A stretch of 64,000 nt of DNA, from contig JAQUNC010000006.1 of NCBI GenBank assembly GCA_028717805.1, forward strand, positions 1-64,000. Direction: 5' to 3'. Below, in pieces: positions 9,691 through 55,033 of this stretch; the stretch's first letter is position 1, and each line of letters opens with the position of its first letter. This DNA is from Atribacterota bacterium. Lineage in GTDB: Bacteria; Atribacterota; Phoenicimicrobiia; Phoenicimicrobiales; Stramentimicrobiaceae. The position numbers were made by a program, and so were the translations under genes. Below the pieces are notes generated by a model. It made no database searches, had not been told where the DNA came from, and was given only the letters and a program-made list of their open reading frames with translations.

Positions 9691-9766
9691 AAAATTGACT
9701 TGCTTCCTCTTTACTTGTATCTTACCGTGATTTCAGTAAAAACGAAGGGGAAAGCAAGTCAATTTT
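9691..9766 (-). terminator. 15-bp perfect stem-loop after the TRAP binding-protein gene
   Basis: AAAATTGACTTGCTT (9691-9705) and its exact complement (9752-9766) enclose a 46-nt loop that has a small inner stem. On the minus-strand transcript the hairpin comes 77 nt after the DctP stop and before DctQ, and is followed by UUUU. It is probably a leaky terminator or RNA-stability element giving more binding protein than permease. Confidence 0.7.
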
Positions 9767-9842
9767 TTAATATTACTTTTTAAATTACTCTTAGGTATTG
9801 TTCTAATAACATAATTATTTTATTAATTTATTCTTATATAGC

Positions 9843-10847
9843 TTAATCGCTAATCAATTGATACTCTTTAATGATATTAACGATGCGAGCAGCTCTGTCA
9901 CTTTTTGGTGCTATCTCTTCATCCCAATATTTAAAAGTTAATTCCCGTAACTGATTCCATTCTTCTGCAGGAATTGTTGTTGTTTTAAAATGCTTTAGGC
10001 TCTCCATTTCTCCCTCATAATAATAAGCCATAAGTCTACCACGTAAATCGTTTAATCCTGTAGTTATAGCCTTCTGCTGACCTGGAGATAGCGAATTCCA
10101 TAATTTTTCATTCATAATCCAAGGATTAGTAAAAGCACCAGAAATAGGATTGGTTAAAAAATAGGGGCATACCTCATACCAGCTGTTTGTATATCCTTCA
10201 GTTGCACCTCCCCAAGCAATACCATCTATCATACCTGTCTCAGCTGACAAATATAAATCATCATATGTCAAGGTCACACTGGTAATGCCAACATCTTTAA
10301 AAATGCGGGCAACGTTTGGATCTCCACTTATTTTTAGTCCCTTAAGATCACTTATCGAATTTAATGGTTTCTTACTTATAATATTGAGCGGATCACAAAT
10401 AGTATGTCCCACAACAACAATTCCACCCAAGGCTGCCCATGATTCACTAACAACTTCCTTCATGCCTCTCATTTCCCATAGTGTCAAACACTCCATTGCG
10501 TTATCCCACGCAAAGGGAGGAGCAGATTCGAATGCCACTACATCAATTGGGGCGCCCATATGTGCTCCCATACATGTTGCCATATCAACAGCCCCTGCCT
10601 GAACCGCTGGGATTGTTTGTTGCATAGATGTTAATTCCCCTGCAGTATAAGCTTTAATCTGTAAACTACCCTTGTGAATTTCATTAAAATCTTCTTCCCA
10701 ATCTTTCAGTACATCACCATATTGCACTGGACCCCATAATGTTTGAGCTTTCAAAATCTTTTCCTGTGCCAATGTTAACATAGTTAAACATCCAAAAAAC
10801 AACATAGTTATTAATAGCAAAATCAATATTTTCTTATTAATATACAT
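9843..10847 (-). CDS. dctP: TRAP transporter substrate-binding protein (DctP)
   Basis: The 334-residue protein starts MYINKKILILLLITMLFF with a signal peptide ending about at LAQE, then the DctP fold (LWGPVQYGDVLKDW; VQAGAVDMATCMGAH; SDLKGLKISGDPNVARIF; the region after ISDLKGLK holds the usual ligand-binding stretch). The start at 10847 is chosen because GGAGG lies 7 nt upstream; an earlier ATG at 10886 has no such site and would put 13 polar residues before the signal. It is the first gene of the TRAP operon and has a long leader with a second GGAGG element. Confidence 0.92.
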   Translation of the reverse strand: MYINKKILILLLITMLFFGCLTMLTLAQEKILKAQTLWGPVQYGDVLKDWEEDFNEIHKGSLQIKAYTAGELTSMQQTIPAVQAGAVDMATCMGAHMGAPIDVVAFESAPPFAWDNAMECLTLWEMRGMKEVVSESWAALGGIVVVGHTICDPLNIISKKPLNSISDLKGLKISGDPNVARIFKDVGITSVTLTYDDLYLSAETGMIDGIAWGGATEGYTNSWYEVCPYFLTNPISGAFTNPWIMNEKLWNSLSPGQQKAITTGLNDLRGRLMAYYYEGEMESLKHFKTTTIPAEEWNQLRELTFKYWDEEIAPKSDRAARIVNIIKEYQLISD

Positions 10848-10957
10848 ATTAAAACCTCCAAATATTTTATTTATTGAAAATGTCATTCTTAATATTATGT
10901 ACTAGATAGTAAGAAAAATGCTAGTTTTAAAATTTACCACTTCCCTCTAAAGCAACA

Positions 10958-10966
10958 CCTCCTTTC
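10958..10966 (-). promoter_or_regulatory. Extra Shine-Dalgarno (GAAAGGAGG) in dctP leader, STAB-SD-like
   Basis: GAAAGGAGG followed by TG lies 110 nt before the dctP start with no credible gene behind it. The same nine bases in the cry3A leader of Bacillus thuringiensis bind ribosomes and protect the mRNA. The remaining 10848-11175 gap is AT-rich; I see no other feature in it. Confidence 0.5.
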
Positions 10967-11175
10967 AGTAAGAAATGAAAAAATAGAAAAAAATTTTTGT
11001 CTAAAGTATGTTTCAGTTATATTATTCTTTCATTTCATATTTTTATTTAACACTTAGTATTGTCTGAAAATCCTATTTCTAGTAAACTAACTACACAATT
11101 TCCTTGGGCTTTAATAATAATTCCTTAATTCTAAAAGAAATACAGTCAGTTTTTATTTATATATAATTCTATTGT

Positions 11176-12474
11176 TTATCGATTAAATATCTGATTTCGG
11201 GATATTCCATCACTTAAATTTGATTCCTGCAAATTACTTGAATCTAAAAATAAAAGGGGCTGTTCAAAGGCTTCCCGGACATCTTCCATAAACTTAGCAG
11301 CAGTTAATCCATCAATAACTCTATGATCATAGGTAAAATAGTAGGTCAGGATGGGACTAATAACAATTTTGCCTTCACGAACTACGACTCTGTCTGAAAT
11401 ACCACCAGTCCCGAGAATCGCTGACTCCGGTTGGTTAATTATGGGGGTCTCAAAACGATATCCTGCTCCACTAAAGGATCCTAAATTAGTAACTGTAAAA
11501 GTACCACCGGTTACATCCCTAAGTTGTAGCTTTTCTTCTTTTGCTTTTTTTATAAGTTCTTTTAATTCTATACTTAAAGAAGGTAATGATTTTTTATCTA
11601 CATCCTTTATCACTGGAACAATTAAACCGTTTTCCAAAGATGTCGCAACTCCTATATTTATACTATCCCATAACTTGATCTCATTATCTATGAGACTAGC
11701 GTTGATAATTCGATGTTTCTTAAGTTGTTTTGCAACTAAATAAACGAATAAAACTGTATATGTAATCCTTGTGCCAATAATCTTTTCCTGTGCAAGCATA
11801 TTTTTACGTAACTTTGTCATCTCTGTCATGTCAATCTCCCCCATAAGTGTAAGCTGTGCAGAGACGGATAAGCTTCTAACCATGTGTTCGGCTATCTGTT
11901 TTCTCATTTGGTTAAGGGGTATTATTTCTCCTACTTTCCTCCCATCATATAAATCCAGAATTTCTTTCTGTCCATCCTTATCATGAATTAATTTCTCAAT
12001 ATCATTTTTTATTATAATTCCTTCTGGCCCTGTACCGCTGATAGATGTAATATCTATTCCGTATTTCTTAGCAATCCTACGTGCAGCTGGTGAAATTCTT
12101 AATCTTTCTTTATCTTCTAAAGAAGATGGGATCAAAGAGCTATCTTTTTTCGTTTCTCTTTCTATCTTGTTCTCACTTTTGGAAGGCGATTCAACTATTG
12201 CTTCAGTTATTTTTTTATTCTTAATTTGCTGATATTCTTCTAAGGTTTCAGCAACAATACCAATAACTGTCCCTATGGGAACTTCTTGTCCTTCGCTCAC
12301 TAAAATATGCACATATCCTGATATTTCTGCTTCTATAGTATAATTTATTTTTTCTGCTTCTATAGTTACAATTTCATTACCCGGTTTAACATGGTCTCCT
12401 TCTTTTATTATCCACTGAGCAACAAGAATAGGTGTGTTAGTCATTCCTCGTTTAGGTATTTTAATTTCTTTCAT
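11176..12474 (-). CDS. Dihydrolipoamide acyltransferase (E2) of a 2-oxoacid/acetoin dehydrogenase
   Basis: A 432-residue E2. Residues 1-77 form a lipoyl domain with lipoyl lysine K42 (EAEKINYTI), about 125-163 the E1/E3-binding domain (RISPAARRIAKKYGIDI), and the remainder the acyltransferase with the active-site motif DHRVIDG (H384). ATG at 12474 is preceded by GGAGA 7 nt away; a TTG two codons earlier is less likely. With the E1 alpha and beta genes upstream it makes a TPP-dependent complex that converts a 2-oxoacid or acetoin to acyl-CoA and NADH. No E3 gene is present in the window. The C-terminal 25 residues are a polar extension. Confidence 0.92.
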   Translation of the reverse strand: MKEIKIPKRGMTNTPILVAQWIIKEGDHVKPGNEIVTIEAEKINYTIEAEISGYVHILVSEGQEVPIGTVIGIVAETLEEYQQIKNKKITEAIVESPSKSENKIERETKKDSSLIPSSLEDKERLRISPAARRIAKKYGIDITSISGTGPEGIIIKNDIEKLIHDKDGQKEILDLYDGRKVGEIIPLNQMRKQIAEHMVRSLSVSAQLTLMGEIDMTEMTKLRKNMLAQEKIIGTRITYTVLFVYLVAKQLKKHRIINASLIDNEIKLWDSINIGVATSLENGLIVPVIKDVDKKSLPSLSIELKELIKKAKEEKLQLRDVTGGTFTVTNLGSFSGAGYRFETPIINQPESAILGTGGISDRVVVREGKIVISPILTYYFTYDHRVIDGLTAAKFMEDVREAFEQPLLFLDSSNLQESNLSDGISRNQIFNR

Positions 12475-12530
12475 TAACAACTCTCCTTTTATATGAATTT
12501 ATAACAATAGCTTAAATTATATTCTTTATC

Positions 12531-13346
12531 TTATATCGTTGAACCACCGTCAATACTCAAGGCTTCACCAGTAATATGATCAGAAACTGAAAGAAAAACT
12601 ACTGCTTCAGCCATATCTTCAACTGTCTGCAATGCTCCTTGAGGATAATTTGTCTTTACAATTCTATAAAAACTTTGCTTTTCGGTTTCACCATTTTTTG
12701 CAAGCTTTTGACTTATTTCATTCCACATTTGCGTTTCAACAACACCAGGACAAATTGCATTAACAGTTATTTTTTCCTTAGCAAGTTCTATTGCTAACGC
12801 CTTAGTAAAACCAATAACGCCCCATTTTGATGCACAATAATGTGATAATCCAATTTCTCCTTTTTTCCCAGATTCTGATGAAAAATTAATAATTTTACCC
12901 TTGCCTTGCTTCCTCATCTGAGCAACTACAGCTTTATTGGTTATATATGTTCCCTTTAAATTCACCTCAATAATATGATCCCAATCTTGGAGAGTGAGGT
13001 TCTCGATGAGTCTAAAAGATATTACTCCTGCACAATTTACTAGAATATCAACAGTACTAAAATTTTTTACTGTTTCATCAATCATCTTTTTTACTTGTTC
13101 TTCTTTTGTTACGTCTGCTTCTATTGCCAGCGCCCTAAAGCCTTTTTCTATCAAAAATTTAACAATTTTCTTTGCGGCTGTATATCCTCCAATGTTTTTA
13201 CTAAAATACTGGTTGCAATCTGATTTAACAATATCTACTCCCACAATTACAAGGTTGGCCCCTTCTCTTGCTAATCGCAGTGATACACCTTTACCAATCC
13301 CTGTTCCTCCTCCTGTTACTATGGCAGTTAAGTTCTTTAGTCTCAT
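12531..13346 (-). CDS. Short-chain dehydrogenase/reductase
   Basis: The 271-residue SDR has the NAD(P) motif TGGGTGIG (11-18), NCAG (104-107), and catalytic Ser156/157, Tyr170 and Lys174 (YCASK). The segment after the second beta strand (residues 40-68, DIVKSDCNQYFSKNIGGYTA) is an insertion compared with the commonest classical SDRs. It sits between the E1 beta and E2 genes. Acetoin/diacetyl reductase is a plausible role beside an acetoin-type dehydrogenase, but SDR specificity cannot be read from sequence. The start is an ATG behind a GGGGG site. Confidence 0.85.
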   Translation of the reverse strand: MRLKNLTAIVTGGGTGIGKGVSLRLAREGANLVIVGVDIVKSDCNQYFSKNIGGYTAAKKIVKFLIEKGFRALAIEADVTKEEQVKKMIDETVKNFSTVDILVNCAGVISFRLIENLTLQDWDHIIEVNLKGTYITNKAVVAQMRKQGKGKIINFSSESGKKGEIGLSHYCASKWGVIGFTKALAIELAKEKITVNAICPGVVETQMWNEISQKLAKNGETEKQSFYRIVKTNYPQGALQTVEDMAEAVVFLSVSDHITGEALSIDGGSTI

Positions 13347-13454
13347 TATCTAATCCCCCTTATACCAATAAATGTGAATTTCATCATAATACATAAATAT
13401 ATATTTAATAATTTTCAAAAATAAGGTACTGCATAGATAATATAGACTATATTC

Positions 13455-13509
13455 ATTTCATGATAGTTTCCACTCAATTTGTGAATATGAGAGAAAACTA
13501 TCATGAAAT
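13455..13509. repeat. 15-bp perfect inverted repeat with 25-nt loop
   Basis: ATTTCATGATAGTTT (13455-13469) is exactly complementary to 13495-13509. It lies in the 329-nt gap between the E1 beta and SDR genes. A second, weaker dyad, TGTTTTCT/AGAAAACA (13583-13617), with AATCGAG repeated inside, lies nearer E1 beta. Neither has a U-run. They may be an mRNA-processing or partial termination point dividing E1 from SDR-E2. I see no gene in this gap. Confidence 0.55.
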
Positions 13510-13675
13510 TAGGTAATAAAATGATCATATTGTTTTTAATTTTTCTATCTATACAATATATCAACCAAGCTCAATTAAAGATTGTTTTCTAATCGAGTTG
13601 CTAAAATCGAGAAAACAGAATATGAACTATAGTAATTAATATTCATCCAGACAACAAGTGTAATTTTATTATTTT

Positions 13676-14656
13676 TTATATTATTGAATGTATAGCCTCA
13701 ATAAGTTTGTTCTCATCTGGTAACCAGTATTTTTCAAGTGGCGGGCTAAATGGAATCGGGGTATTTGGTGCACACACTCTCTTAACTGGTGCATCAAGAT
13801 ATTCTATTGCTTGTTCAGCAATTATTGCCGCAATCTCACTAGCTGCACTTCCTATTTTTGGTTCTTCATCTAATATAACTATTTTCCCTGTTTTCTTAAC
13901 TGATTCAATTATTGTTTTCTCATCGAGTGGTGCCATACATCTTGGATCAACTACTTCTAAACTAATATTTTCTTGTTTGAGTTTACCTGCAGCAGAAAGT
14001 GCTGTATGAACCATATTTCCTATGGCAACAACAGTCACATCATCACCTTCATTCCTGATTACTGCTTCTCCTAGTGGAATAGTGTAATCATTTTCTGGAA
14101 CCTCACCTTTAAAACCACTAATAGTTAGAAATAAATTCTGGAAAAAAATAACAGGATTATCATCCCTAATTGCTGATTTTAATAACCCTTTAGCATCATA
14201 GGGAGTAGATGGTGAAACCATTTTTAATCCTGGTACACTCATTAACATTCCTTCTAAACAAACTGAATGCTGAGCTGCAGCATTCATCCCACCACCAGAA
14301 AGACACATAATTGTGACTGGCATCTTTGTTTTACCCCCGAACATATAACGCATCTTGGTAACTTGACTGAATATTTCATCCATAGGCACACCAAGAAAAC
14401 TAGCAAACATGACATTAGCTATTGGCCTCATACCGGTCATCGCAGCTCCAATGGCACATCCTAAAAATGCAGTTTCAGAGATAGGCGTTTCCCTAATTCT
14501 TTCTGCACCAAATTTTGGCCATAATCCTTCAAATTCTTTTACTGATCCCTGCCAGTGTTCTCCTATGTCTTCCCCCATAATAAATATGGATGGATCTCTT
14601 TCCATCTCTTCTTTTAGTGCTTCAATTATCGCTTCCCTATAAGTTAATATTCTCAT
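13676..14656 (-). CDS. 2-oxoacid/acetoin dehydrogenase E1 beta subunit
   Basis: The 326-residue protein has the transketolase-like pyrimidine-binding domain (about 1-175; FIMGEDIGEHWQGSVKEFEG, GERIRETPISETAFLGCAIGAA type motif) and the C-terminal domain (LEVVDPRCMAPLDEKTI; VILDEEP). It pairs with the E1 alpha gene 20 nt upstream. The close match in style is the AcoB/PdhB-like beta subunit of Gram-positive and clostridial acetoin dehydrogenases; pyruvate or branched-chain 2-oxoacid use is possible. ATG start behind a GGGGG site. Confidence 0.9.
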   Translation of the reverse strand: MRILTYREAIIEALKEEMERDPSIFIMGEDIGEHWQGSVKEFEGLWPKFGAERIRETPISETAFLGCAIGAAMTGMRPIANVMFASFLGVPMDEIFSQVTKMRYMFGGKTKMPVTIMCLSGGGMNAAAQHSVCLEGMLMSVPGLKMVSPSTPYDAKGLLKSAIRDDNPVIFFQNLFLTISGFKGEVPENDYTIPLGEAVIRNEGDDVTVVAIGNMVHTALSAAGKLKQENISLEVVDPRCMAPLDEKTIIESVKKTGKIVILDEEPKIGSAASEIAAIIAEQAIEYLDAPVKRVCAPNTPIPFSPPLEKYWLPDENKLIEAIHSII

Positions 14657-14676
14657 ATTATATATCCCCCTTTTTT

Positions 14677-15636
14677 TTAAGCATAAACATCTTCTAACGT
14701 TTCTTCAGGTTCCGGATATGGACTTTCTTTTGCAAATTTAACAGCTTCTTCCACCTCATTTTTCATTTTTTGATTAATTCTTTCAGCTTCTTTTTCAGTT
14801 AAAATACCATCCTTAATTAGTCGTCTTTTTAATAATTCAATTGGTTCTTTTTTTAACCATGCTTCAATCTCAGATTTCTTTTTATAGGTTTCCGTATCAC
14901 CCTCTTCATGACCAAAATGTCTATAGGTCTGAATTTCTATAAGTGATGGTCCTTTGCCCTTTCGAGCTCTATCTATTGCCTTTCCAACTTTTTCATATAT
15001 TTCCAATACATCATTGCTATCAATAGTTTCTCCTGGAATTCCATATGCAATAGCTCTATCAGAAAGTTTTTTTAATCTAGTGGAATAAAAAATACTGGTA
15101 GCCTCCGCATAAAAATTATTTTCAATAATAATTACAATGGGTAGGTCCCATATGGCAGCTAAATTAATTCCTTCATGAAATCTTCCAGTATTTGATGCAC
15201 CATCGCCAAGAAAACATAGAGTAACTTGGCCACTTTTTCTTAATTTTGCTGAAAGACCAGCACCGGTTGAAATTGTCACTGTGGAACCGACAATACCATG
15301 TGCACCCAACATATTAATATCCATATCAGCAAGGTGCATGGAACCACCTTTCCCCTTACAATAACCAGTCTTTTTCCCATATAATTCAGCCATCATAAAA
15401 TTAATATTGCCACCTTTAGCAATCAAATGACCATGACCTCGATGGTGGCTTACAATATAGTCATCTTCTCTAAGGTTTGTAATACATCCAACTGCAATAG
15501 CTTCCTGACCTGCAGATAAATGAATAAAACCAGGAATATCCCCATCAGCAAACGATTTTTTTACTCTTGTTTCAAACTGCCTTATCAAAACCATTTTACT
15601 AAACATATCTAAAAGTTGTTCTTTGTTGAGTTTCAT
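14677..15636 (-). CDS. 2-oxoacid/acetoin dehydrogenase E1 alpha subunit
   Basis: A 319-residue TPP enzyme. The TPP motif runs from G144-D-G to N173-N174 (FLGDGASNTGRFHEG ... IIENN), and SHHRGHGH marks the N-terminal active-site region. The start at 15636 follows AAGGAGG by 8 nt; an out-of-frame ATG lies between them and an in-frame ATG 13 codons upstream has no site. E1 alpha decarboxylates the 2-oxoacid (or cleaves acetoin) on TPP and passes the acyl group to E2. Its 300-nt leader carries an extra GAAAGGAGG. Confidence 0.9.
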   Translation of the reverse strand: MKLNKEQLLDMFSKMVLIRQFETRVKKSFADGDIPGFIHLSAGQEAIAVGCITNLREDDYIVSHHRGHGHLIAKGGNINFMMAELYGKKTGYCKGKGGSMHLADMDINMLGAHGIVGSTVTISTGAGLSAKLRKSGQVTLCFLGDGASNTGRFHEGINLAAIWDLPIVIIIENNFYAEATSIFYSTRLKKLSDRAIAYGIPGETIDSNDVLEIYEKVGKAIDRARKGKGPSLIEIQTYRHFGHEEGDTETYKKKSEIEAWLKKEPIELLKRRLIKDGILTEKEAERINQKMKNEVEEAVKFAKESPYPEPEETLEDVYA

Positions 15637-15731
15637 ACATTTTGCCTCCTTAATATTCTTAGATAAAATAATCATTATTTTGCTATTTTTGACTCATAAT
15701 ACTATAATAAATTTTTATCGTATAAGTTTTA

Positions 15732-15740
15732 CCTCCTTTC
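15732..15740 (-). promoter_or_regulatory. Extra GAAAGGAGG in the E1 alpha leader
   Basis: The nonamer, followed by TAAA, lies 95 nt before the E1 alpha start; the next ATG in the leader opens a frame of only four codons. It is identical to the elements before dctP (10958) and the second dctP (55025). Confidence 0.5.
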
Positions 15741-15792
15741 CAATCAGACTATTATCCTAACCAATTAGTTCATTCATCCAAAATTATTATTA

Positions 15793-15843
15793 TATAGCTA
15801 ATACAGAGAAAAAATTTGAAATTTTTTCTCTGTATTAGCTATA
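15793..15843. terminator. 25-bp perfect hairpin with 1-nt loop
   Basis: Positions 15793-15817 and 15819-15843 are exact reverse complements around a single G. Each arm ends at the centre in A/T runs (AAAAAATTT). On the minus strand it lies 95 nt after the stop of the ABC binding-protein gene and before the E1 alpha leader, so it most likely ends or protects the transport operon's transcript. Because it is symmetric it would also act in the other direction. Confidence 0.75.
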
Positions 15844-15937
15844 TCTCATTTTAAGAATTTTGATTTTCAATCTACCTTCTCGTATCTATTGACACTTATT
15901 TATAATCATCTTTTTTCTCAATTAGATAAAAATAGAA

Positions 15938-17455
15938 TTAAAAATCTTTTAATTTAGGTATTTTGTTCTTTATTTCCTCAGCAGCTTTATCGAGAGCAAC
16001 CTTTGGTTCATATTGCCCGACAAGACATCCATTTATGTATCTTGCTAAAATATCATCAATAACTACAGCTTCAGGAAATCTTGGCTGGTCAAAGGCTGCC
16101 GGAAATAATTCACCTGTTAAGGGATCTGGTGTTTCAGCATACTCTTTAGGTAAACCCCATGCACTTCCTGGTTCTCTAAAAGCTTTTTTACCATCAAGCT
16201 CTAAAATTCTGGCATGGGTAATAAAATAGTGTGATGGTGCATAAGTAAGTTTATAAACTTTAGGATCTTGATATGCCGAATCAGATAAAGAGATACTCCC
16301 ATTAGCCATTATTTCAGCCTGAACCTCTTTACGTTGGGTCCATTGCAAGAAAAGCCAAGCAGCTTCTTTATTTTTAGATGCTGATGGTATACACAAAGCC
16401 CAACCATTTAAATTGGTAGTTTTACGAGCAGCAATTGGCATACCACTATAAGCAACCTTTCCCACAACCCTCGATTGAGAAGGGTCTTCACTAATAGCAT
16501 AGCAGGCATCTGCCCATAATAAAGTCTGCACAGCAAGCCCAGACTGCATAGCTGCTAATTGTTCATCCCAAGTGTAAGTATCGCTTCCAGGAGGACAGAA
16601 ATTATCATACAAATCTTTATAGTAAATTAGGGCTCTTATTGCTTCTTCTGAGTTGATTACAACTGGCCCATAATCAAATCCTGTTGGTGCATCAATTATT
16701 TTTCCATTAAAGGCAGATAAAACATTTTTAAAATTAAATACAGTGGCAATATGCCTTTTACCACATAATGTAATTCCATATACATCATGATCCAGAATTT
16801 CATCTGCTAATTTTTCTCCCTTTTTCCTAGTAAAGAATTCAGATAAATCCCTTAGTTGATCCATGTTGATTGCTGGAACCGGTAATTCATAACCATATTT
16901 AGCTTTAAACTTTTCTCTCTCTTCTGGATGTTCAAAAAGATCAACTCTCCAATCATAGATCAGGGTATGAAAAGAGAATGGTAAGCCATATAACTTACCT
17001 TTATACTCAAAATTACCATTTAACCACTCTAGATTACTAATATCCATTCCGATATAAAAATTGGGACTTGTAATTTTTTTGTTATCTATAAAAGTTTCTA
17101 CCGGTTCTAACCAACCATTTTCCGCATCTCTAGATACAGTACTATTGCTAGTCATAGTTATATCATAAATACCTGTTCCTGCTACATAGTCAGCTATAGC
17201 CTTTTCGTCTGCTTCATCCATGGCAAACATTTCAAATTCTACTTTTATACCGGTAAGTTCTGTAAACTCTACTGACTTCTGCTTTAAAGCATCTAGGGGG
17301 GGTAAGGCTTCTCCAATCATATGTAATGTTACCCCTTTATAAGGTTTTGCCGCTTCTACCAGCCATTCATCTTCTGGATTTTGAGCACTAGAAGACAAAG
17401 TAAACAATAAAAAAGATACAATTAAAAATAGAGTAATAATATTAACTTTTTTCAT
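15938..17455 (-). CDS. ABC transporter solute-binding protein, family 1 (GlpV-like position)
   Basis: This 505-residue exported protein has a signal peptide (MKKVNIITLFLIVSFLLFTL, cleavage near SSAQN) and the carbohydrate-type family 1 fold, with GIYDITMTSNSTV and GKLYGLPFSFHTLIYDWR in the N-lobe and NGWALCIPSASKNKEAAWLF in the C-lobe. It is longer than maltose-type proteins (about 400). It closes a six-gene importer cluster: permease, permease, small membrane protein, ATPase, ATPase, binding protein. That set matches the rhizobial glycerol system GlpSTPQUV, so a small polyol or related ligand is a reasonable but unproven guess. Confidence 0.88.
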   Translation of the reverse strand: MKKVNIITLFLIVSFLLFTLSSSAQNPEDEWLVEAAKPYKGVTLHMIGEALPPLDALKQKSVEFTELTGIKVEFEMFAMDEADEKAIADYVAGTGIYDITMTSNSTVSRDAENGWLEPVETFIDNKKITSPNFYIGMDISNLEWLNGNFEYKGKLYGLPFSFHTLIYDWRVDLFEHPEEREKFKAKYGYELPVPAINMDQLRDLSEFFTRKKGEKLADEILDHDVYGITLCGKRHIATVFNFKNVLSAFNGKIIDAPTGFDYGPVVINSEEAIRALIYYKDLYDNFCPPGSDTYTWDEQLAAMQSGLAVQTLLWADACYAISEDPSQSRVVGKVAYSGMPIAARKTTNLNGWALCIPSASKNKEAAWLFLQWTQRKEVQAEIMANGSISLSDSAYQDPKVYKLTYAPSHYFITHARILELDGKKAFREPGSAWGLPKEYAETPDPLTGELFPAAFDQPRFPEAVVIDDILARYINGCLVGQYEPKVALDKAAEEIKNKIPKLKDF

Positions 17456-17586
17456 TTTTTTCTCCTTTTATTTAGATTAAAATTAAACAGATAATTTTCA
17501 CTTTAAATTATGAGTATATTTCTACAATGTTAATCAAGCTTACTATTTTTTAGAAAAAAAATAAATATTTTTTAATATTTATCTCA

Positions 17587-17592
17587 CCTCCC
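17587..17592 (-). promoter_or_regulatory. Extra GGGAGG (AAAAAGGGAGGTG) in binding-protein leader
   Basis: A ribosome-binding-like sequence lies 131 nt before the start at 17455, with no gene between. It is a less exact member of the set at 10958, 15732, 31133 and 55025. The 200-nt gap otherwise shows only A/T-rich sequence. Confidence 0.35.
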
Positions 17593-17654
17593 TTTTTAAA
17601 GCAACTGCATTAAAAAAGTCAATTTTATGCCCTATTTCTATTTTTTCATAAGTT

Positions 17655-29242: not shown

Positions 29243-30004
29243 TCATCTCCACTTACTTGTAAATATCATTTCTAAAAATATAAAGAACCTTTCAAATAGA
29301 AAACACATCATAGCCAGGATTATTAAACAGACAATAATAATATCTATTCGCATCAAACTCTCCGCACGCATCATTAAAGCACCTATCCCCGTTGGAATGG
29401 CAACCATTTCAGCAGCAATAATTACTCGCCAAGCCATTCCGGATTCTAACCTTAGCCCGGTAAAAATATTTGGTAAGGCCAAAGGAATAACCACGGAAAA
29501 TAGTATTTTCTTATCAGAAGCCCCTAGGGTTTTGGCAACTCGGATATAATTTTTATCTACTGTTTTAATGCCAGTTGAAGTATTATAGAGAATAGGGAAA
29601 AATGAACAAATAAATATAATAGTAATAGGCAATATCTCACCTATTCCTAACCATAACATCAAAAGGGGTAGCCAACCTAAGGCCGGAATAGGGTATACCA
29701 GGCTTATAATAGGACTTAATGTTCTATCAAGTAAATAATTCCAGCCGGTTAAAATACCAAAAACAATTCCAGCAACAGTACCTAAAGAAAATCCAATCAA
29801 AACACGCGAAAGACTACTTATAAAACTTTTTCCTAAAATCCCGCTTACAGTAAGGTTATAAAACTCAGAAACTACCATAGAAAAAGGGGGGAGAAAAAAT
29901 TTTCCAGATATTAAATGCATTCTTGCCATTAATTCCCATAATATTAAAAAAATAATTATCGGGAAAATTCCCAATATAGATTTAAATACTTTTGAAAAAA
30001 TCAT
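29243..30004 (-). CDS. ABC transporter permease (SsuC/TauC type)
   Basis: A 253-residue, six-helix BPD permease with an EAA-type loop (RVAKTLGASDKKILFSVVIPLALP) and the MAWRVIIAAEMVA motif of nitrate/sulfonate/taurine-type permeases. The ATG overlaps the stop of the binding-protein gene (ATGA); the ATPase gene starts 3 nt after its stop. Confidence 0.9.
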   Translation of the reverse strand: MIFSKVFKSILGIFPIIIFLILWELMARMHLISGKFFLPPFSMVVSEFYNLTVSGILGKSFISSLSRVLIGFSLGTVAGIVFGILTGWNYLLDRTLSPIISLVYPIPALGWLPLLMLWLGIGEILPITIIFICSFFPILYNTSTGIKTVDKNYIRVAKTLGASDKKILFSVVIPLALPNIFTGLRLESGMAWRVIIAAEMVAIPTGIGALMMRAESLMRIDIIIVCLIILAMMCFLFERFFIFLEMIFTSKWR

Positions 30005-31017
30005 TCACTCAAAAACCTCAAATCTAATATTTCATCAACCTTAAATACATCTCTTATATAACCTAATTCTGCAACGAAATTTATTGTATCCTGAACGGTT
30101 GCAGAATCAATATCCATATTATAATCTAATCTATGCATTGATTTTAATAAAGTATCAGTACTAAATTCAACCATACTCATATCTATATCCTTTATCTGAG
30201 CTGGTAAGGTATATTCACCATCCAGGGATAACTGATGGGCGACTATCTCAGCTGCCTTCTCTGGATTTTGATTAATCCAATCCGTCGCTTTTTTGGTTAC
30301 CTTTACTAATTTTCTGACTATTTCAGGATAATCTTCCAGTAATTCTGTTTTGACTACCAAAACACTTCCCTGCATTTTAGGCCACACCTCTTGGCTCATC
30401 AACAACATATGGTAATTAAAATTTTCTGCCATAGTAGCCCATTGTTCGGGAAGAAAAGCAGCATCCAGTCTTCCCATCTGAAGAGCTAAAAGCTGTTTTG
30501 GTGGATTCATCCTCTGAATATTGTTTAATACCTTATCTTTGTTCAAATTATATTTATTAATTGTCTTATGAAGAAGTACATCTACGGCTCCTCCCTCTGT
30601 AACACATCCGATTCGCATTCCATCTTTTTCAAGGTCTTGCACACTCTTAACTTTATTACTGTCAACAACTAATCCATATCCATATTTATGCGTTCCTGCC
30701 ACAATCTTTATAGGTACTTTCGCATTGGCATAGGCATTGATTGCCGGAACCAGACAAATATAGGCTGCTTGAATATCTCCCCGCCCCAAGGCAGAAGCCA
30801 ATGCCATGCCCGTAACATAGTTTTCATATGAATCAATATTTAAGCCTTCTTCCTCAAACCATCCTTGATATTGACTGACATAGGCAGAAGCAGCATGATC
30901 CATAAATTCTACTGCCATTCCGATGGGCACGCTTTCTTTTCCTGCACAAGAGCTGGTAATAAAAAAGCAACTAAAAATAAATAATACATTTATAATCAAC
31001 AAGATTACTTTCTTCAT
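30001..31017 (-). CDS. ABC transporter binding lipoprotein (NMT1/SsuA type)
   Basis: A 338-residue protein with a lipoprotein signal (ITSSC, lipid cysteine C24) and the NMT1/SsuA-like two-lobe fold (AAYVSQYQGWFEEEGL; GMRIGCVTEGGAVDVLLHK; LLALQMGRLDAAFLPEQW). Known ligands of the fold include sulfonates, nitrate, thiamine precursors and heterocycles. The operon begins with a MoeA-like gene and DUF364 and lies beside molybdenum hydroxylases, so either a metal oxyanion or a heterocyclic substrate is possible. A 7-codon upstream frame overlaps its start. Confidence 0.88.
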   Translation of the reverse strand: MKKVILLIINVLFIFSCFFITSSCAGKESVPIGMAVEFMDHAASAYVSQYQGWFEEEGLNIDSYENYVTGMALASALGRGDIQAAYICLVPAINAYANAKVPIKIVAGTHKYGYGLVVDSNKVKSVQDLEKDGMRIGCVTEGGAVDVLLHKTINKYNLNKDKVLNNIQRMNPPKQLLALQMGRLDAAFLPEQWATMAENFNYHMLLMSQEVWPKMQGSVLVVKTELLEDYPEIVRKLVKVTKKATDWINQNPEKAAEIVAHQLSLDGEYTLPAQIKDIDMSMVEFSTDTLLKSMHRLDYNMDIDSATVQDTINFVAELGYIRDVFKVDEILDLRFLSE

Positions 31018-49015: not shown

Positions 49016-50113
49016 CTATCTTATTATTTCAGTTAAAACCTGAATAAATTTTTCATTTTCAAAATGAGTGCCAATAGTCACCCGAATAAAAGTAGGAGTC
49101 CCATATATTTTTCCAGGTCTAATGATAACTCCTTTTCTTAAACACTTTTCAAAAAATAATTGACTATCTTCTTTCAAATCAATGAAGATGAAATTTGTTT
49201 CGGTGGGAAGGTAGAATAAATTGAGTTTATCTAACTCTTGGTAGAGATATTGCTTACCTTCCTTGTTTACTTTTAAAACCTGCTGATAATGGATCTCATC
49301 ATCTAAGGAGGCCAGAGCAGCAACTTGAGCCAGCCGATTAGTAGTAAAAGGATTAACTACCCTTCTTAGGTAGCCAATTAATTCGGGCTTGGCAATGCCA
49401 TAACCTATTCTAACTCCAGCTATTCCTGCTATTTTGGAGAAGGTACGCAGGATGATTACGTTCTTCCCATCTAAAACATAAGAAAGACTATCAGGATAGT
49501 CTTTATCTTCTACATAGTCATAATAAGCTTCATCAAAAATCACAATGACATCTTCAGGAATCTGTCTTATCATCTTTTCCACTGAATTGGTCTTTACAAT
49601 TGTGCCGGTTGGGTTATTGGGATTACAAAGATAAATCATTTTAGTTTTCCCAGTAATTCTTTCAGTTATTCCCTCTAAGTCAAAACAGAAATCTTTTAAT
49701 CCAACTGTAACGAACTCTCCACCCATTATTTTGGTAATAGTTTCATAGGCTGGGAAAGTGGTTTCACTTGTTATTACTTCATCACCCTGGTTAATAAAAG
49801 CCATGCCAGTAAGGTCAATAATATTATCCGCTCCATTACCAACAATAATAAAATCTTCACTGATATTCAATTTCTTTGCTAATTTCTCTCTTAATACTCT
49901 GCTGGTACCTTCAGGATAAAAATTAATATTTTTAATTTCTCTTTCGATTGCCTCTACCGCTAAAGGTGATGGTCCTAGGGATGTTTCATTGGAAGCCAGC
50001 TTCACTACTTCTTTCAACCCTAATTCTCTTTGTACCTCTTCAATAGGTTTGCCTGGAATATAAGGTTTTAAGTCCAGGATACCTTTTCTAGTAAGATGCT
50101 TTGCTTCTAACAT
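49016..50113 (-). CDS. Class II aminotransferase, HisC-like (likely aromatic amino acid)
   Basis: A 365-residue PLP enzyme: ASNETSLGPSP, FYPEGTSRVLREKLA, NPNNPTGTIVK, DEAYYDYVE and the PLP lysine in RTFSKIAGIAGVRIG. Sequence type is histidinol-phosphate aminotransferase, but HisC-like enzymes often act on aromatic amino acids, and no other his genes are near. Directly upstream of iorAB it would supply the aryl pyruvates. ATG 50113 follows GAGGAG; the longer frame to 50158 would begin only about 8 nt after the predicted -10 box. Confidence 0.88.
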   Translation of the reverse strand: MLEAKHLTRKGILDLKPYIPGKPIEEVQRELGLKEVVKLASNETSLGPSPLAVEAIEREIKNINFYPEGTSRVLREKLAKKLNISEDFIIVGNGADNIIDLTGMAFINQGDEVITSETTFPAYETITKIMGGEFVTVGLKDFCFDLEGITERITGKTKMIYLCNPNNPTGTIVKTNSVEKMIRQIPEDVIVIFDEAYYDYVEDKDYPDSLSYVLDGKNVIILRTFSKIAGIAGVRIGYGIAKPELIGYLRRVVNPFTTNRLAQVAALASLDDEIHYQQVLKVNKEGKQYLYQELDKLNLFYLPTETNFIFIDLKEDSQLFFEKCLRKGVIIRPGKIYGTPTFIRVTIGTHFENEKFIQVLTEIIR

Positions 50114-50165
50114 TTCTTTCTCCTCTTTTTTATGCTTTTTTTTATTTATATTAGCCATGGATACA

Positions 50166-50194
50166 AGTATAATAAAAATTGGTAAAGATCTTAA
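50166..50194 (-). promoter_or_regulatory. Putative promoter of the aminotransferase-ior-acd operon
   Basis: TTAAGA (50189-50194), 17-nt spacer and TATACT (50166-50171) on the minus strand, about 50 nt before the chosen start. GTTAAT/ATTAAC and repeated GTTAAC-type motifs (50302-50326) lie further upstream and may be a regulator site. Confidence 0.45.
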
Positions 50195-50344
50195 TATTTA
50201 AAATCAAAAAAATAAGGTAGTATTTTGTTTTTATTCTTTCCTAATATTTTTTATTTATTAAATTTATTCTATGAGGAAAACCATGTTTGACCAGGCTATT
50301 TGTTAATTATTAACACTGTTAACACTTTTGAAAATAAGCAAATA

Positions 50345-51256
50345 TTAAGATAACTCTAGAAGTCTAGCGGGATTAATTTTAGTCATTATTTCTATTTCCT
50401 TTTTACTTATACCATAATGCATCATTATATTTATGAATAAACGCATTCCTTCAATAGGATGAGGATTGGCAAATTGTCCCAAATCTGTTGACATAACACA
50501 GTGTTCAGCTCCTATTTTTTTAATTGCTTCTGCCATAAACTCATGGTTAAATTTTGGATTACGTTGTAAAGGAACAATGGGAATAAAACAGTGTTCTATA
50601 ATTGCTCCCATATCTGATAGTCTTTTTTGATCTTCAATTGTAATACTTAAGATATCTAGTTCAGGGTGAGTTATTAGTATTTTCTCTACACCTCTTTCTT
50701 TTGCAGTTTTTACCAAAACATAAGTCTCTTCCAAAGAAAGATGACACGTCCCTAAAATAACATTTTCCTTTGCAATAAGATCTAAAATATCGAGAATTTC
50801 AGGAATTAATTTTTTATTTGAGTCTAAAATATTAATCCCCTCTACCCTCTTTCCCGATCTATGTATATTTTTAATTAGTTCTAAATCTGGATAGCCATCT
50901 ATGCCAAAAAAATCAATATGATTTTTTGAATGAATACTTGGCATCCATACCTCTTTCGCATTCCACGACAATGCAACCTCTACTGCTTCTGGATTAATTC
51001 CACCAACTGAGTAATTCAACACAATCCCACCAAATACTTCAAGTTCAGGAGCAGTTTCTCTTACATATAACATCCTATCTGAATTAATTACACCATGAGA
51101 TTTAAACAATAGCGCTTTATATCCAATATCTTGAGCTTGTCTAGCCAATTCAATTTCATTAAAAGGTCTTTTGAATATATCAGGAGCAGCATGTACATGA
51201 AGATCGATGACTCCTTTCATAATTTCCTTGTCATTTTCAGGCAAACTGATGCTCAT
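50345..51256 (-). CDS. DUF6282-type amidohydrolase-like protein
   Basis: A 303-residue TIM-barrel hydrolase relative with the metal motif VIDLHVHAAPDIFKRP, further acidic/histidine sites (GTCHLSLEET; ITHPELDIL; EHCFIPIVP) and a C-terminal STDLGQFANPHPIEGM. I recognise the DUF6282 pattern. ATG 51256 after GGAGG. It lies downstream of the second TRAP transporter in the same direction, so it probably acts on the imported compound; the reaction is unknown. Confidence 0.82.
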   Translation of the reverse strand: MSISLPENDKEIMKGVIDLHVHAAPDIFKRPFNEIELARQAQDIGYKALLFKSHGVINSDRMLYVRETAPELEVFGGIVLNYSVGGINPEAVEVALSWNAKEVWMPSIHSKNHIDFFGIDGYPDLELIKNIHRSGKRVEGINILDSNKKLIPEILDILDLIAKENVILGTCHLSLEETYVLVKTAKERGVEKILITHPELDILSITIEDQKRLSDMGAIIEHCFIPIVPLQRNPKFNHEFMAEAIKKIGAEHCVMSTDLGQFANPHPIEGMRLFINIMMHYGISKKEIEIMTKINPARLLELS

Positions 51257-51518
51257 TTTATCCTCCAAATTTTAATATTATAATCATATTTATTTTTAAT
51301 AGAAATGATAAACACATAGTTGCAAATAAAAAATTTAATGAGCTTATTTAATTCATTAATCTTTTATTACTTAAAATTTTTTATATCCATCAGATTTATT
51401 TTAATATCAAGTATCAATTCCAAATATTTTTAAAGCTTTTTTAAAGCTACAGACTAATTTAAAAATAAATTTTTCCTAACATTCTTTTACTATAAATAAT
51501 CAGTCTTTGCGTGAAATT

Positions 51519-52796
51519 TTATAAAAAGCCAAATAAGTTAGGAAGCCATAGTGTTAAAAAAGGAGTAAAAGATATCAAGAAAAGAATGCCAATCTCTATC
51601 AATAAAAAAAGTAATATTTCTTTGCTCAGGCTTACTATCTGTACTTTAGCAATGGAACTTGCTATAAACAAAACTTGTCCCACTGGTGGCGTAAGTAGGC
51701 CCAGAGTAGCACCAAGAATAAATATCACTCCGAAATGTATTGGATGCAATCCAAATCTAACTGATAAGGGTGCTAATATAGGGGCAAATATTAATATGAG
51801 AGGTGGGGTATCAATAAAAGTACCCAATATTAAAATAAGTATATTTACTAAAATTATAAAAGTGAGAGGTGTACAAAAACTAAATAATCTTCCAAATATT
51901 ACTCCTACCTTATTTATTGCTAATACCCAAGAAAATAGATTAGATGTAGCAACTATTATCATTACAACAGAAGTTGTTATAGCTGACTTTAGTAGCATTT
52001 TAGGAACATCAGATATTTTAATTGTTCGAAGAAAAAACACACTCAGTACAAATGCGTAGGCAGCAGCTACAGCGGAAGCCTCAGTTGGAGTAAAAATACC
52101 ACCTAAAATACCACCTAAAATTATAATAGGCATAAATAATGCTGGTATTGTATTCTTAAAACTAATGAGTATCTTTTTGATACTCATTTTTTCACTTTTT
52201 GGATATTTCCTTTTTAAGGAAATATAGTAAACTGTAGCCATCAAACCAAATCCAAGTAATAGTCCGGGAACAACTCCTGCCAAAAATAGACCACCTATAG
52301 ATGTTCCAGTTGCAATACAGTATAAAACTGCTGGATTACTTGGTGGTATTATTGGACCAATAAGAGCTGACGCACTAGTAATAGCGGCAGAGAACTCTTT
52401 ATCATAACCATTTTTTACCATCATGGATATCTCCACAGAACCGAGAGCAGTGACATCTCCTATAGCTGTTCCAGTCATTCCTCCAAATATCATACTTGCT
52501 ATGACATTGGCTAATGCTAAACCTCCTCTGACAAAACCAATTAAAGCAACTGCAAATTCAAGAAGAGCATCGGTTATTTTTCCGTTGGTCATAAACTCAC
52601 CTGAAAGTATAAAAAATGGAATACAAAGCAAAGTATAGGCATCTAAACCATAAAATATTTTCATTGATAGAACTTCCATAGAGGTCCCCATCATTAATAT
52701 AGGAATTGAACCAGCTATACCTAAAGTAAATGCGATTGGTACATTCAATAATAGAATAATTATAAATACTAAAAACATTATTAAAATAAATATCAT
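51519..52796 (-). CDS. dctM: TRAP transporter large membrane subunit (DctM), second system
   Basis: A 425-residue protein with about 12 membrane helices and the signatures MTGTAIGDVTALGSVEISMM, ALIGPIIPPSNPAVLYCIA and GTFIDTPPLILIFAPILAP. The ATG overlaps the DctQ stop. The ligand is likely the substrate of the DUF6282 protein. Confidence 0.93.
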   Translation of the reverse strand: MIFILIMFLVFIIILLLNVPIAFTLGIAGSIPILMMGTSMEVLSMKIFYGLDAYTLLCIPFFILSGEFMTNGKITDALLEFAVALIGFVRGGLALANVIASMIFGGMTGTAIGDVTALGSVEISMMVKNGYDKEFSAAITSASALIGPIIPPSNPAVLYCIATGTSIGGLFLAGVVPGLLLGFGLMATVYYISLKRKYPKSEKMSIKKILISFKNTIPALFMPIIILGGILGGIFTPTEASAVAAAYAFVLSVFFLRTIKISDVPKMLLKSAITTSVVMIIVATSNLFSWVLAINKVGVIFGRLFSFCTPLTFIILVNILILILGTFIDTPPLILIFAPILAPLSVRFGLHPIHFGVIFILGATLGLLTPPVGQVLFIASSIAKVQIVSLSKEILLFLLIEIGILFLISFTPFLTLWLPNLFGFL

Positions 52797-53317
52797 TTAT
52801 ATTTGCGCTCCTTCATAAGTCTTTCATTCATAGAAGTCTTAAATATTGATTCTATTTCTACCAGAGTGTGTATAGCTAATATACCGAATCCAATCGGAAT
52901 AGAAACAAATATAAGGTACATTGGTATTCCACTAACAGCACTAGTTTGATATTTTTGAAATAAAAATAAACTTGAACTAATCCCATTCCATATTACGATA
53001 ATAAAAAAAATTAGCATCATCATTCGAGTTGTTAACTTAATCCAACTATTTGTTCTTTTTTTGATGAACGGTAGTTCTAGTGCAACATGAGATCCTTCAA
53101 TCTCGGCAATACCAATCCCAATCATAATGATCCATATGAATAAATATCTAGCTATTTCTTCACTCCAAGAGAAAGAAAAATGGAAAATGAAACGATTAGC
53201 TATGGTTATCAATACCAGTACAAACATTATTATCATTAAGATTACCACAAAAATTCTGGAAATCTTATCTAAATAGTAACTAATTCTTTCAATCCAAACT
53301 TCATATTTCATAATCAT
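52793..53317 (-). CDS. dctQ: TRAP transporter small membrane subunit (DctQ), second system
   Basis: A 174-residue, four-helix protein (ITIANRFIFHFSFSWSEEIARYLF; GSHVALELPFIKKR). ATG 53317 chosen because AGGAGGG lies 7 nt upstream; the longer frame to 53335 includes that site. The 504-nt gap upstream holds the hairpin after dctP and otherwise nothing I recognise. Confidence 0.9.
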   Translation of the reverse strand: MIMKYEVWIERISYYLDKISRIFVVILMIIMFVLVLITIANRFIFHFSFSWSEEIARYLFIWIIMIGIGIAEIEGSHVALELPFIKKRTNSWIKLTTRMMMLIFFIIVIWNGISSSLFLFQKYQTSAVSGIPMYLIFVSIPIGFGILAIHTLVEIESIFKTSMNERLMKERKYK

Positions 53318-53760
53318 TGAAATACCCTCCTTCATTGCAATTACTTACCCAGTAAACCATTGTAAACACCTATTATAATTTGTTAAATATAAATTTCTTC
53401 AATAGCACTAGCACTATCATTATTAGTTTTTACTGTAATAAATTAATGTCTTCATCATAATTCATCAACATTATTAGAAGGAATCCCACTTACCCTAATG
53501 GATATAGCCCTCTTTAACAACAGTTAGCTTAGTAAAATTCGTAAGAAGAGGTTGATTTTGTATTTTAACTTTGTTTTATTATCTTTTATGAGATAGCAAA
53601 ACACTAAACTAGAGATATTAGTAAGATTATTTCTAATATTGAGCAATAAATATTCTTTTTTTATCAATATGGAGTATTCTTTTCTTTAAAATATATTTTT
53701 CCATTGTTAGCTTACTAATCTGAGCTTTTAATTACCCAATCAGGGATCTAAATGAAATGC

Positions 53761-53808
53761 AGGGATAGAAACAATTTACTCTTTTAGTTTCTATTAATTT
53801 CTATCCCT
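53761..53808 (-). terminator. 11-bp perfect stem-loop after the second dctP
   Basis: AGGGATAGAAA (53761-53771) pairs with TTTCTATCCCT (53798-53808), loop 26 nt. It begins 13 nt after the dctP stop on the minus strand and has no U-run, so it may protect the dctP mRNA rather than stop all transcription. The rest of 53336-53760 shows no gene. Confidence 0.55.
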
Positions 53809-53821
53809 TTAAAACATATTA

Positions 53822-54889
53822 TTATTCTTCAACTAAAGATTTTTCTACTTCCTTCACCGCATTTAGAACTTCATTAACCCATTCTTCTCCAATTTGAGAT
53901 TTTATAAAATCAACCATGGGAGTTCTAGTTACTTCGATAAATTCCTCTAACTCTTCTTGTGTTGGGTAGTAGATTTCCATACCTTTTTCTGTAAAAGATT
54001 TTGCCCATAAAGTATTACCAAGTTCTAAAAAACCTCTGTAAGCCATAGCAGATGCCATTGCAGCATCTTGAATAATTTTTTGGTATTCAGGTGTAAGAGA
54101 CTGATAAAAATTCTCATTAATCTGAAGGGGGTACCAACGGAATTCGTGAGCGTCTACAGTAAGATATTTTTGTACTTCGTATAATTTTGCTACATCTATA
54201 AAGTTAAATGGATTCTCTTGTCCATCTGCTACTCCTTGCTGAAGCGCCATATAAAGTTCACCCCAACTTATTACAACAACATGCCCTCCTAAAGATTCAA
54301 CAAGTTTTACTTTATCTGAGCTTGCCATAATCCTCATCTTCATGCCTTTAAAATCAGCTGGAACATGAATTGGCTTAGTATTATTTGTCCAATGTACAAA
54401 TCCAGCATGAGACCAAGATAAAATTCGCAAACCAGTTCTTTCTAACCACAATTTTTCAAATTTTTCCCCGATTGGCCCCTCTATAACTTTATATGCAACC
54501 TTTGGGGATGTGAACAAGTATGGTATAGTAAACGCCATATACTCAGGTACCAAGGATGGTAAATTTGGAGACGGCACTTGAACCATTTGAATTAATCCTC
54601 TTTCTGCACTTTGAAGTAATTCTGCATCTGTGCCTAATTGTTTATCGGGGAAAATATCTACCATTATATCACCATTGGTTTGGTTTTCTACTATCCTTTT
54701 GAAAACGATAGCTTGTATATGTGCACTACCATAATTTCCATCTGTATATTCAAAGTCTATGTTACTTACAGGATCATTATGTGCATATTGTATTGTTATT
54801 TTTTCTGCATATACGCTTTCGAATGGTAAAATTATTAGGATTATTGAAATAATTAACAATAAGATACTAAATGTATATTTTTTTATCAT
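53822..54889 (-). CDS. dctP: TRAP transporter substrate-binding protein (DctP), second system
   Basis: A 355-residue protein with a signal peptide (MIKKYTFSILLLIISIILII, cleavage near VYAEK) and the classical DctP fold (ELLQSAERGLIQMVQVPS; FKGMKMRIMASSDKVKLVESLG; GELYMALQQGVADGQENPFN). The conserved arginine that binds a ligand carboxylate is expected in MKMRIM. So the ligand is probably an organic acid. First gene of its operon, with a long leader. Confidence 0.93.
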   Translation of the reverse strand: MIKKYTFSILLLIISIILIILPFESVYAEKITIQYAHNDPVSNIDFEYTDGNYGSAHIQAIVFKRIVENQTNGDIMVDIFPDKQLGTDAELLQSAERGLIQMVQVPSPNLPSLVPEYMAFTIPYLFTSPKVAYKVIEGPIGEKFEKLWLERTGLRILSWSHAGFVHWTNNTKPIHVPADFKGMKMRIMASSDKVKLVESLGGHVVVISWGELYMALQQGVADGQENPFNFIDVAKLYEVQKYLTVDAHEFRWYPLQINENFYQSLTPEYQKIIQDAAMASAMAYRGFLELGNTLWAKSFTEKGMEIYYPTQEELEEFIEVTRTPMVDFIKSQIGEEWVNEVLNAVKEVEKSLVEE

Positions 54890-55024
54890 TTTTTTCTCCT
54901 CAAAAGATCTATAATTCTTTAATTATTAAGGGTATTTAACAAACAAAATTGATTTAGAGCTTATCCTTTTTACAAAACATTATATTATTTTACTTATAAA
55001 TTGTAATAATTTTTAATGTTTTTA

Positions 55025-55033
55025 CCTCCTTTC
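55025..55033 (-). promoter_or_regulatory. Extra GAAAGGAGG in the second dctP leader
   Basis: Identical nonamer, followed by TAAAAA, 135 nt before the dctP start; no start codon follows at useful spacing. Confidence 0.5.

What the first reader, a model, noticed from the sequence alone, without database searches (positions are those of the whole stretch)
9691..55033. Transport-protein mRNAs carry a STAB-SD-like leader and a 3' hairpin
Seen: GAAAGGAGG occurs in three leaders (10958, 15732, 55025) and near forms in two more (TAAAGGAGG 31133; AAAAAGGGAGG 17587), each 95-135 nt before the true start and with its own separate ribosome site at the gene. Four of the five genes are ABC/TRAP binding proteins; the other is E1 alpha. 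None is followed by a credible reading frame. Several binding-protein genes also have a perfect hairpin soon after the stop (9691, 15793, 53761, 61483). Known: GAAAGGAGG in the cry3A leader stabilises mRNA by binding 30S ribosomes. Inference: this organism may use the same device, with 3' hairpins, to overproduce binding proteins relative to permeases.
Basis: partly seen in the sequence, partly recalled or inferred. Interest (0 to 1): 0.7.

Follow-up and report, generated by a model that had tools for sequence, protein, structure and literature searches.

The report
Start-less ribosome sites before transporter genes
In this bacterium and its whole phylum, genes for nutrient-binding proteins carry an extra, unusually strong ribosome-docking sequence about 90 bases before the real start, with no start codon behind it, and a strong hairpin after the gene, which together probably keep that part of the message alive so that far more binding protein than channel protein is made.

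Summary
In 91 leaders of solute-binding protein (SBP) genes (35 from this genome, 56 from 15 relatives), 87% have a distal site that pairs with the 16S tail at -12 kcal/mol or better. Shuffled leaders reach that in 8.6%, the reverse strand in 0%. In a 38% sample of this genome, 17 of 40 secreted-protein genes but 5 of 381 others have it at -15 kcal/mol or better (p = 2e-15). The logo is AGAAAGGAGGTGAT, the complement of the 16S tail GATCACCTCCTTTCT. Start codons behind it are depleted, so a leader peptide is unlikely. It recurs across the phylum (probably Atribacterota) and is near chance level in DctP genes of other phyla. The 3' hairpins are also real: all 19 testable SBP-type genes have one, usually without a T tract. 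The cry3A mechanism cannot be copied exactly: RNase J was not found in 9 of 9 genomes, while RNase E/G is in all nine. Best reading: a 30S-docking site plus a hairpin bracket the SBP cistron and protect it. Binding and stability are inferred, not shown. New variant of a known kind.

The parts
10955..10968 (-). Distal start-less SD of the DctP gene (CTGAAAGGAGGTGT)
   Evidence: -19.5 kcal/mol with the 16S tail; read
10855..10859 (-). Proximal SD (GGAGG) of the DctP gene, start codon at 10847
9843..10847 (-). TRAP solute-binding protein (DctP)
   Evidence: PF03480, 98 bits
9691..9766 (-). 3' stem-loop behind DctP, before the permease genes
   Evidence: About -28 kcal/mol, 31 bp, not perfect
15732..15740 (-). 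Distal start-less SD (GAAAGGAGG) before E1 alpha
   Evidence: -17.6 kcal/mol
14677..15636 (-). Dehydrogenase E1 alpha, the non-transport exception
   Evidence: PF00676, 292 bits
15792..15844 (-). Perfect 26-bp 3' stem-loop behind the SBP gene, no T tract on this strand
17584..17597 (-). Distal start-less SD (AAAAAGGGAGGTGA)
   Evidence: -17.8 kcal/mol
15938..17455 (-). ABC solute-binding protein (SBP_bac_1)
   Evidence: PF01547, 71 bits
31133..31141 (-). Distal SD-like site (TAAAGGAGG) just behind the upstream gene's stop; weakest of the five
   Evidence: -12.5 kcal/mol
30001..31017 (-). ABC solute-binding protein (NMT1 family)
   Evidence: PF13379, 85 bits
55025..55033 (-). Distal start-less SD (GAAAGGAGG)
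   Evidence: -17.6 kcal/mol
53822..54889 (-). TRAP solute-binding protein (DctP)
   Evidence: PF03480, 242 bits
53761..53808 (-). 3' stem-loop behind DctP
   Evidence: About -19 kcal/mol
61483..61522 (-). 3' stem-loop (15-bp perfect arms) behind an SBP_bac_3 gene (61532-62296) that lacks a clear distal SD

Best explanation
The element is a non-initiating ribosome-docking site in the 5' untranslated part of SBP messages. It is complementary to the whole 3' tail of 16S rRNA, so a free 30S subunit can sit on it about 90 nt before the real start, but no start codon lies behind it. Together with the strong stem-loop behind the stop codon it brackets the SBP cistron. The docked 30S shields the 5' side against entry by 5'-end-dependent nucleases (RNase E/G here, possibly a beta-CASP nuclease), and the hairpin stops 3'-5' exonucleases. 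The SBP segment then outlives the permease segment of the same transcript, giving more binding protein than permease. Shown: sequence, complementarity, lack of start codons, selectivity, conservation, hairpins, nuclease gene content. Inferred: 30S binding, longer half-life, SBP excess.
For: Complementarity to the 16S tail in 91 SBP leaders: mean -16.1 kcal/mol, against -8.3 in shuffles, -4.4 on the reverse strand and -10.7 for the proximal SD. Logo conserved only over the roughly 14 nt that pair with the tail, flanks free; tail GATCACCTCCTTTCT read in three relatives. Starts depleted behind it: ATG 6 against 15.9, any start 23% against 39% in shuffles; stop in frame with the SBP start in 71 of 74 leaders. 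Selective for secreted, mostly SBP, genes in an unbiased sample, p = 2e-15. Present in other families of the phylum, 11/17, near chance in DctP of other phyla, 3/40. In two relatives it lies behind a T-box, so it is inside the leader. 3' stem-loops: 19/19 at -15 kcal/mol or better with a same-strand neighbour, median -27.8, against 33% and -12.6 for other genes; T tract in about 11%. RNase E/G 9/9, RNase J 0/9, CsrA 0/9. Precedents: cry3A STAB-SD (PMC4113751), stabilised SBP segments in E. coli operons (PMC5927463).
Against: No RNA data: 5' ends, half-lives and 30S occupancy are unknown. The classical nuclease stopped by STAB-SD, RNase J, was not found, so what it protects against is uncertain. 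About 13% of SBP leaders lack it, and TAXI-type SBPs (L006, L007) carry GAAAGGAGGTGA as their proximal SD instead. A few cytosolic genes have it (E1 alpha; an aminotransferase-like gene in L304). Its gap to the start varies widely (50-155 nt). The predicted unpaired probability of the core (0.40) is no better than in shuffled flanks (0.43).
Confidence: 0.58

Rival explanations
1. Translational standby or loading site: the distal SD captures 30S subunits and hands them to the proximal SD, raising initiation rather than stability.
For: Same anatomy, with a stronger SD than the proximal one. A standby site about 100 nt upstream of an RBS is known for tisB (PMC7708055).
Against: Standby is needed where the RBS is sequestered; these leaders are A+T-rich and no more structured than shuffles. 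The gap varies from 50 to 155 nt. The tightly linked 3' stem-loops point to decay control.
Confidence: 0.2
2. A short leader peptide is translated from the distal SD and regulates the SBP gene (attenuation or nascent-chain sensing).
For: A strong SD normally means translation; a few leaders do have ATG, GTG or TTG at a workable spacing (for example L059, L091, L117).
Against: Start codons are depleted at 4-13 nt behind GGAGG, and ORFs of 8 codons or more occur in 6.8% against 17.4% of shuffles. No conserved frame among orthologues.
Confidence: 0.06
3. The GGAGGTGA word is a target for an RNA-binding protein or for a small RNA that carries a CCUCC seed, coordinating transport genes.
For: One motif shared by many transport genes resembles a regulon.
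Against: CsrA, the obvious GGA-binding protein, is absent in 9 of 9 genomes. The logo follows the 16S tail over about 14 nt. No RNA family was found above threshold.
Confidence: 0.1
4. The sites are SDs of missed genes or chance words in A+G-rich leaders.
For: Counts in the window alone are only mildly above shuffles.
Against: 87% against 8.6% in shuffles and 0% on the reverse strand; 5/381 in non-secreted genes; conserved in orthologous leaders while the flanks diverge.
Confidence: 0.02

Closest known systems
STAB-SD of Bacillus thuringiensis cry3A (Agaisse and Lereclus 1996; described in PMC4113751)
   Same: An SD-like sequence in the 5' UTR far upstream of the start (cry3A: near -129), able to pair with the 16S 3' end, not directing translation.
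   Different: cry3A protection is against the 5'-3' exonuclease RNase J1, which was not found here. Here it is a serial feature of SBP genes, uses the TGAT side of the tail as well, and is paired with a 3' stem-loop.
Differential decay of SBP operons such as malEFG in E. coli (PMC5927463)
   Same: SBP cistron outlives the permease cistrons; protective RNA structure at its 3' border; the outcome proposed here is the same.
   Different: In E. coli protection is by RNA structures, mostly inside flanking coding regions, and by ribosome density. No start-less SD is part of that scheme.
Ribosome standby site of tisB (PMC7708055)
   Same: 30S binds about 100 nt upstream of the true RBS.
   Different: [quoted passage not shown] here it is plain complementarity to the 16S tail in unstructured leaders.
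Polypurine 5' stabilisers (B. subtilis; katG of mycobacteria, PMC2358910)
   Same: Purine-rich, 16S-complementary sequence stabilises the downstream RNA.
   Different: In katG it is the proximal SD itself, 4 nt before the start, and translation is required.

Membership tests
STAB-SD (cry3A type) | SD-like sequence complementary to the 16S 3' end, distal in the 5' UTR | tested here: met
   16S tail
STAB-SD (cry3A type) | Does not direct translation initiation (no start codon behind it) | tested here: met
   Starts depleted; sequence evidence only
STAB-SD (cry3A type) | Marks the 5' end of a processed, stable transcript | not testable with these tools
   Needs RNA 5'-end mapping. T-box upstream in two relatives shows that the site is internal to the leader there
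STAB-SD (cry3A type) | Blocks RNase J 5'-3' exonuclease | tested here: not met
   RNase J family model: 0 of 9 genomes over cut-off; the own genome's weak match is an aCPSF1-like beta-CASP protein
STAB-SD (cry3A type) | Raises mRNA stability | not testable with these tools
   No expression data available
malE/malF-type differential decay | Stem-loop at the 3' border of the SBP cistron, before permease genes, not a terminator | tested here: met
   19/19 at -15 kcal/mol or better; T tract in about 11%
malE/malF-type differential decay | SBP segment is more stable than the permease segment | not testable with these tools
   Needs RNA half-lives
Standby site | RBS sequestered in stable structure | tested here: not met
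   Leader MFE -0.119 per nt against -0.115 in shuffles
Leader-peptide attenuator | Conserved small ORF behind the SD | tested here: not met
CsrA target | CsrA encoded in the genome | tested here: not met
   0 of 9 genomes

The most novel reading that the evidence does not exclude
A whole bacterial phylum without RNase J uses idle 30S subunits, docked on start-less full-length anti-SD complements, as a general 5' cap-like shield for one functional class of messages (solute-binding proteins). Paired with 3' stem-loops, this sets the binding-protein to permease ratio in dozens of operons against RNase E/G-type decay.
Probability: 0.4. Interest if true: 0.82.

Novelty: new variant of a known kind. 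Interest (0 to 1): 0.68.

Why it matters
Non-initiating SDs are known from a few single messages. Here the same device appears in about nine of ten SBP genes examined in a genome and across a phylum of mostly uncultured bacteria, with built-in internal controls (transcription regulators that match the same Pfam family, and 381 other genes, lack it). If it works as proposed, it extends 30S-based message protection beyond RNase J organisms, explains how these cells overproduce binding proteins, and gives an annotation rule for SBP genes. It also warns that strong SDs without starts are selected, which matters for small-ORF prediction.

Tried and rejected
Leader peptide: rejected on start-codon depletion and lack of a conserved frame. 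Misplaced gene start (distal SD as the true SD of a longer protein): rejected, stop codons in frame in 71 of 74 leaders and signal peptides at the called starts. CsrA: absent. Known RNA family: none in the window or in 20 SBP loci at gathering scores. Wide occurrence in DctP genes generally: rejected, 3/40 in other phyla, although L167 (Selenomonadales MAG) has a convincing GGAGGTGGTA 72 nt upstream. DNA-level site: rejected by strict orientation, 0% at -12 kcal/mol or better on the reverse strand. Conserved promoter at fixed distance upstream: none seen in the logo. 3' hairpins as terminators: unlikely, few T tracts and same-strand genes follow. Literature: the held library has no paper with STAB-SD and substrate-binding protein together and none on dctP with intergenic stem-loop. 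A search for malE/REP was swamped by the word 'male'.

Full report
Observation. Inside the 64-kb window the counts are only mildly above shuffles (AAAGGAGG 8 against 3.7; GAAAGGAGG 3 against 0.6). The window genes are two DctP proteins, an SBP_bac_1 protein, an NMT1-type binding protein and a dehydrogenase E1 alpha.

Genome scale. The window lies in a 2.27-Mb genome of 92 contigs. I read 30 of the 35 exact GAAAGGAGG sites. Roughly a third are ordinary proximal SDs, roughly a third lie in coding sequence, and about 11 are intergenic and 80-151 nt before a gene. Eight of those are before binding proteins (BMP-type, TRAP, sugar-binding, tungstate-binding, NMT1-like, ABC sugar-binding; named here from their sequences), the rest before a lipoprotein, an NhaC-like antiporter and E1 alpha. 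I then collected SBP genes by family (PF03480 19 hits, PF13407 12, PF13416 12). Reading their leaders showed that the true consensus is GGRGGTGAT, not GAAAGGAGG. Regulators, mostly LacI-type, that match the same Pfam family PF13407 (L077-L081) lack it.

Strength. For 91 SBP leaders (35 own, 56 from 15 related genomes) I computed the best duplex with the 16S tail in the region 42-170 nt before the start. The mean is -16.1 kcal/mol, against -8.3 in dinucleotide shuffles, -4.4 on the reverse strand and -10.7 for the proximal SDs of the same genes. 87% are at -12 or better, against 8.6% of shuffles and 0% of reverse strands. By genome the fraction is 30/35 in the window's genome, 10/10 in G009 and 9/9 in G010. 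The 16S tail, read in three relatives, is GGATCACCTCCTTTCT; the own 16S gene is cut off at a contig end. The logo of 74 aligned sites is [AG]AAAGG[A/g]GGTGAT, and nothing outside about 10 nt is conserved. Leaders of orthologues are not independent, but the own-genome paralogues have diverged leaders.

Selectivity. In an unbiased sample of 864 kb (38% of the genome, own gene caller), 421 genes have a long enough upstream spacer. At -15 kcal/mol or better the site is found in 17 of 40 genes for secreted proteins and 5 of 381 others (Fisher p = 2e-15). The caller and the signal-peptide rule are crude, but both groups were treated alike.

No reading frame. Start codons 4-13 nt behind GGAGG occur in 23% of leaders against 39% of shuffles, ATG 6 times against 15.9, and ORFs of 8 codons or more in 6.8% against 17.4%. 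In 71 of 74 leaders there is a stop in frame with the SBP start, so the distal site is not the SD of a longer SBP. Leaders are as unstructured as shuffles.

Conservation. In orthologous DctP leaders of five genomes the word GGRGGTGRTA stays while the flanks diverge. In other families of the phylum 11 of 17 DctP leaders have it. Among 80 DctP loci of named organisms from other phyla, 40 were usable and 3 reach -12. L167, a Selenomonadales MAG, looks like a real case outside the phylum. The phylum has about 50 species in 7 families with genomes up to 3.1 Mb, one of them a single 3.1-Mb contig. That matches Atribacterota, in which Atribacter laminatus RT761 is the largest at 3.1 Mb (PMC11227167). 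This naming is inference.

Position in the message. In two relatives (L101, L112) a T-box leader lies upstream of the element (77.6 and 83.9 bits, below the curated 93, but E about 1e-16), with its GGGTGGTACC motif and terminator-like repeat. There the element is inside the 5' UTR behind an attenuator, not at the transcription start. In L062 and L142 it follows within a few nt of the stop of the upstream gene, so it is intercistronic.

3' side. Secreted-protein genes with the distal SD and a same-strand neighbour at least 60 nt away all (19/19) have a stem-loop of -15 kcal/mol or better, median -27.8. For other genes in the same arrangement it is 33%, median -12.6 (p = 5e-11; p = 5e-10 when the other genes are limited to spacers of 150 nt or more), and only 11% of the SBP hairpins have a T tract. 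Across 57 SBP genes of several genomes 89% have -12 or better, most before a membrane-protein gene. Such hairpins are not special to this phylum: behind DctP genes of other phyla with a long spacer they also exceed shuffles by about 11 kcal/mol. So the 5' element is the lineage-specific half of the pair.

Nucleases. RNase J (TIGR00649) is not over the cut-off in any of 9 genomes, RNase E/G is in all 9, CsrA in none. The weak RNase J match of the own genome belongs to a beta-CASP protein closest to aCPSF1 and type VII Cas14. The own RNase E/G protein is RNase G-like and 500 aa long. Absence is stated at the sensitivity of these models and for genomes 68-98% complete.

Mechanism. Shown by sequence: the 16S-complementary, start-less site, the hairpin, their selectivity and their conservation. 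Inferred: 30S subunits dock there; this hinders RNase E/G (5'-end dependent) or another 5' nuclease; the 3' hairpin hinders 3'-5' exonucleases; the SBP cistron outlives the permease cistrons. Precedents are cry3A STAB-SD, where a 30S blocks RNase J1 (PMC4113751), the statement in PMC7509114 that 30S binding without translation may suffice to impair decay, and SBP segments stabilised by differential decay in E. coli (PMC5927463). A translational standby role (PMC7708055) is the main rival. It predicts a structured RBS, which is not seen, but it cannot be excluded without experiments.

Verdict. Real, strong, conserved, selective. It works like STAB-SD by anatomy, but membership fails on the one testable mechanistic feature (RNase J), so I file it as a new variant of a known kind. 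Interest 0.68.

Noticed in passing
L112 1048-1269 (+) and L101 2586-2811 (-): T-box leaders (77.6-83.9 bits, below gathering score) upstream of TRAP DctP genes in two relatives, so uptake is probably under tRNA control there.
   Followed up: partly
L267 434-2099 (+), own genome C14: A beta-CASP metallo-beta-lactamase protein of 554 aa, closest to aCPSF1 and type VII CRISPR Cas14 models but below both cut-offs; a candidate RNase in an organism without RNase J.
   Followed up: partly
L167, about 72 nt before the DctP start: GGCGGAGGTGGTA distal site in a Selenomonadales MAG: the device may occur outside the phylum.
   Followed up: no
L006 and L007 (TAXI-type SBPs): These SBPs lack the distal site and use GAAAGGAGGTGA as the proximal SD instead.
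   Followed up: partly
L052, L075, L076: SBP genes of the own genome that are broken by in-frame stops.
   Followed up: no
L255, L256 (another family of the phylum): Variant AAGGAGGCGATA with C in place of T in the distal site.
   Followed up: no
window 15792-15844: Perfect 26-bp palindromic stem with 1-nt loop between an SBP gene and E1 alpha; E1 alpha carries its own distal SD, the clearest non-transport case.
   Followed up: partly
L088 (own genome C14): Two GGAGGTGA sites in tandem upstream of one SBP gene.
   Followed up: no
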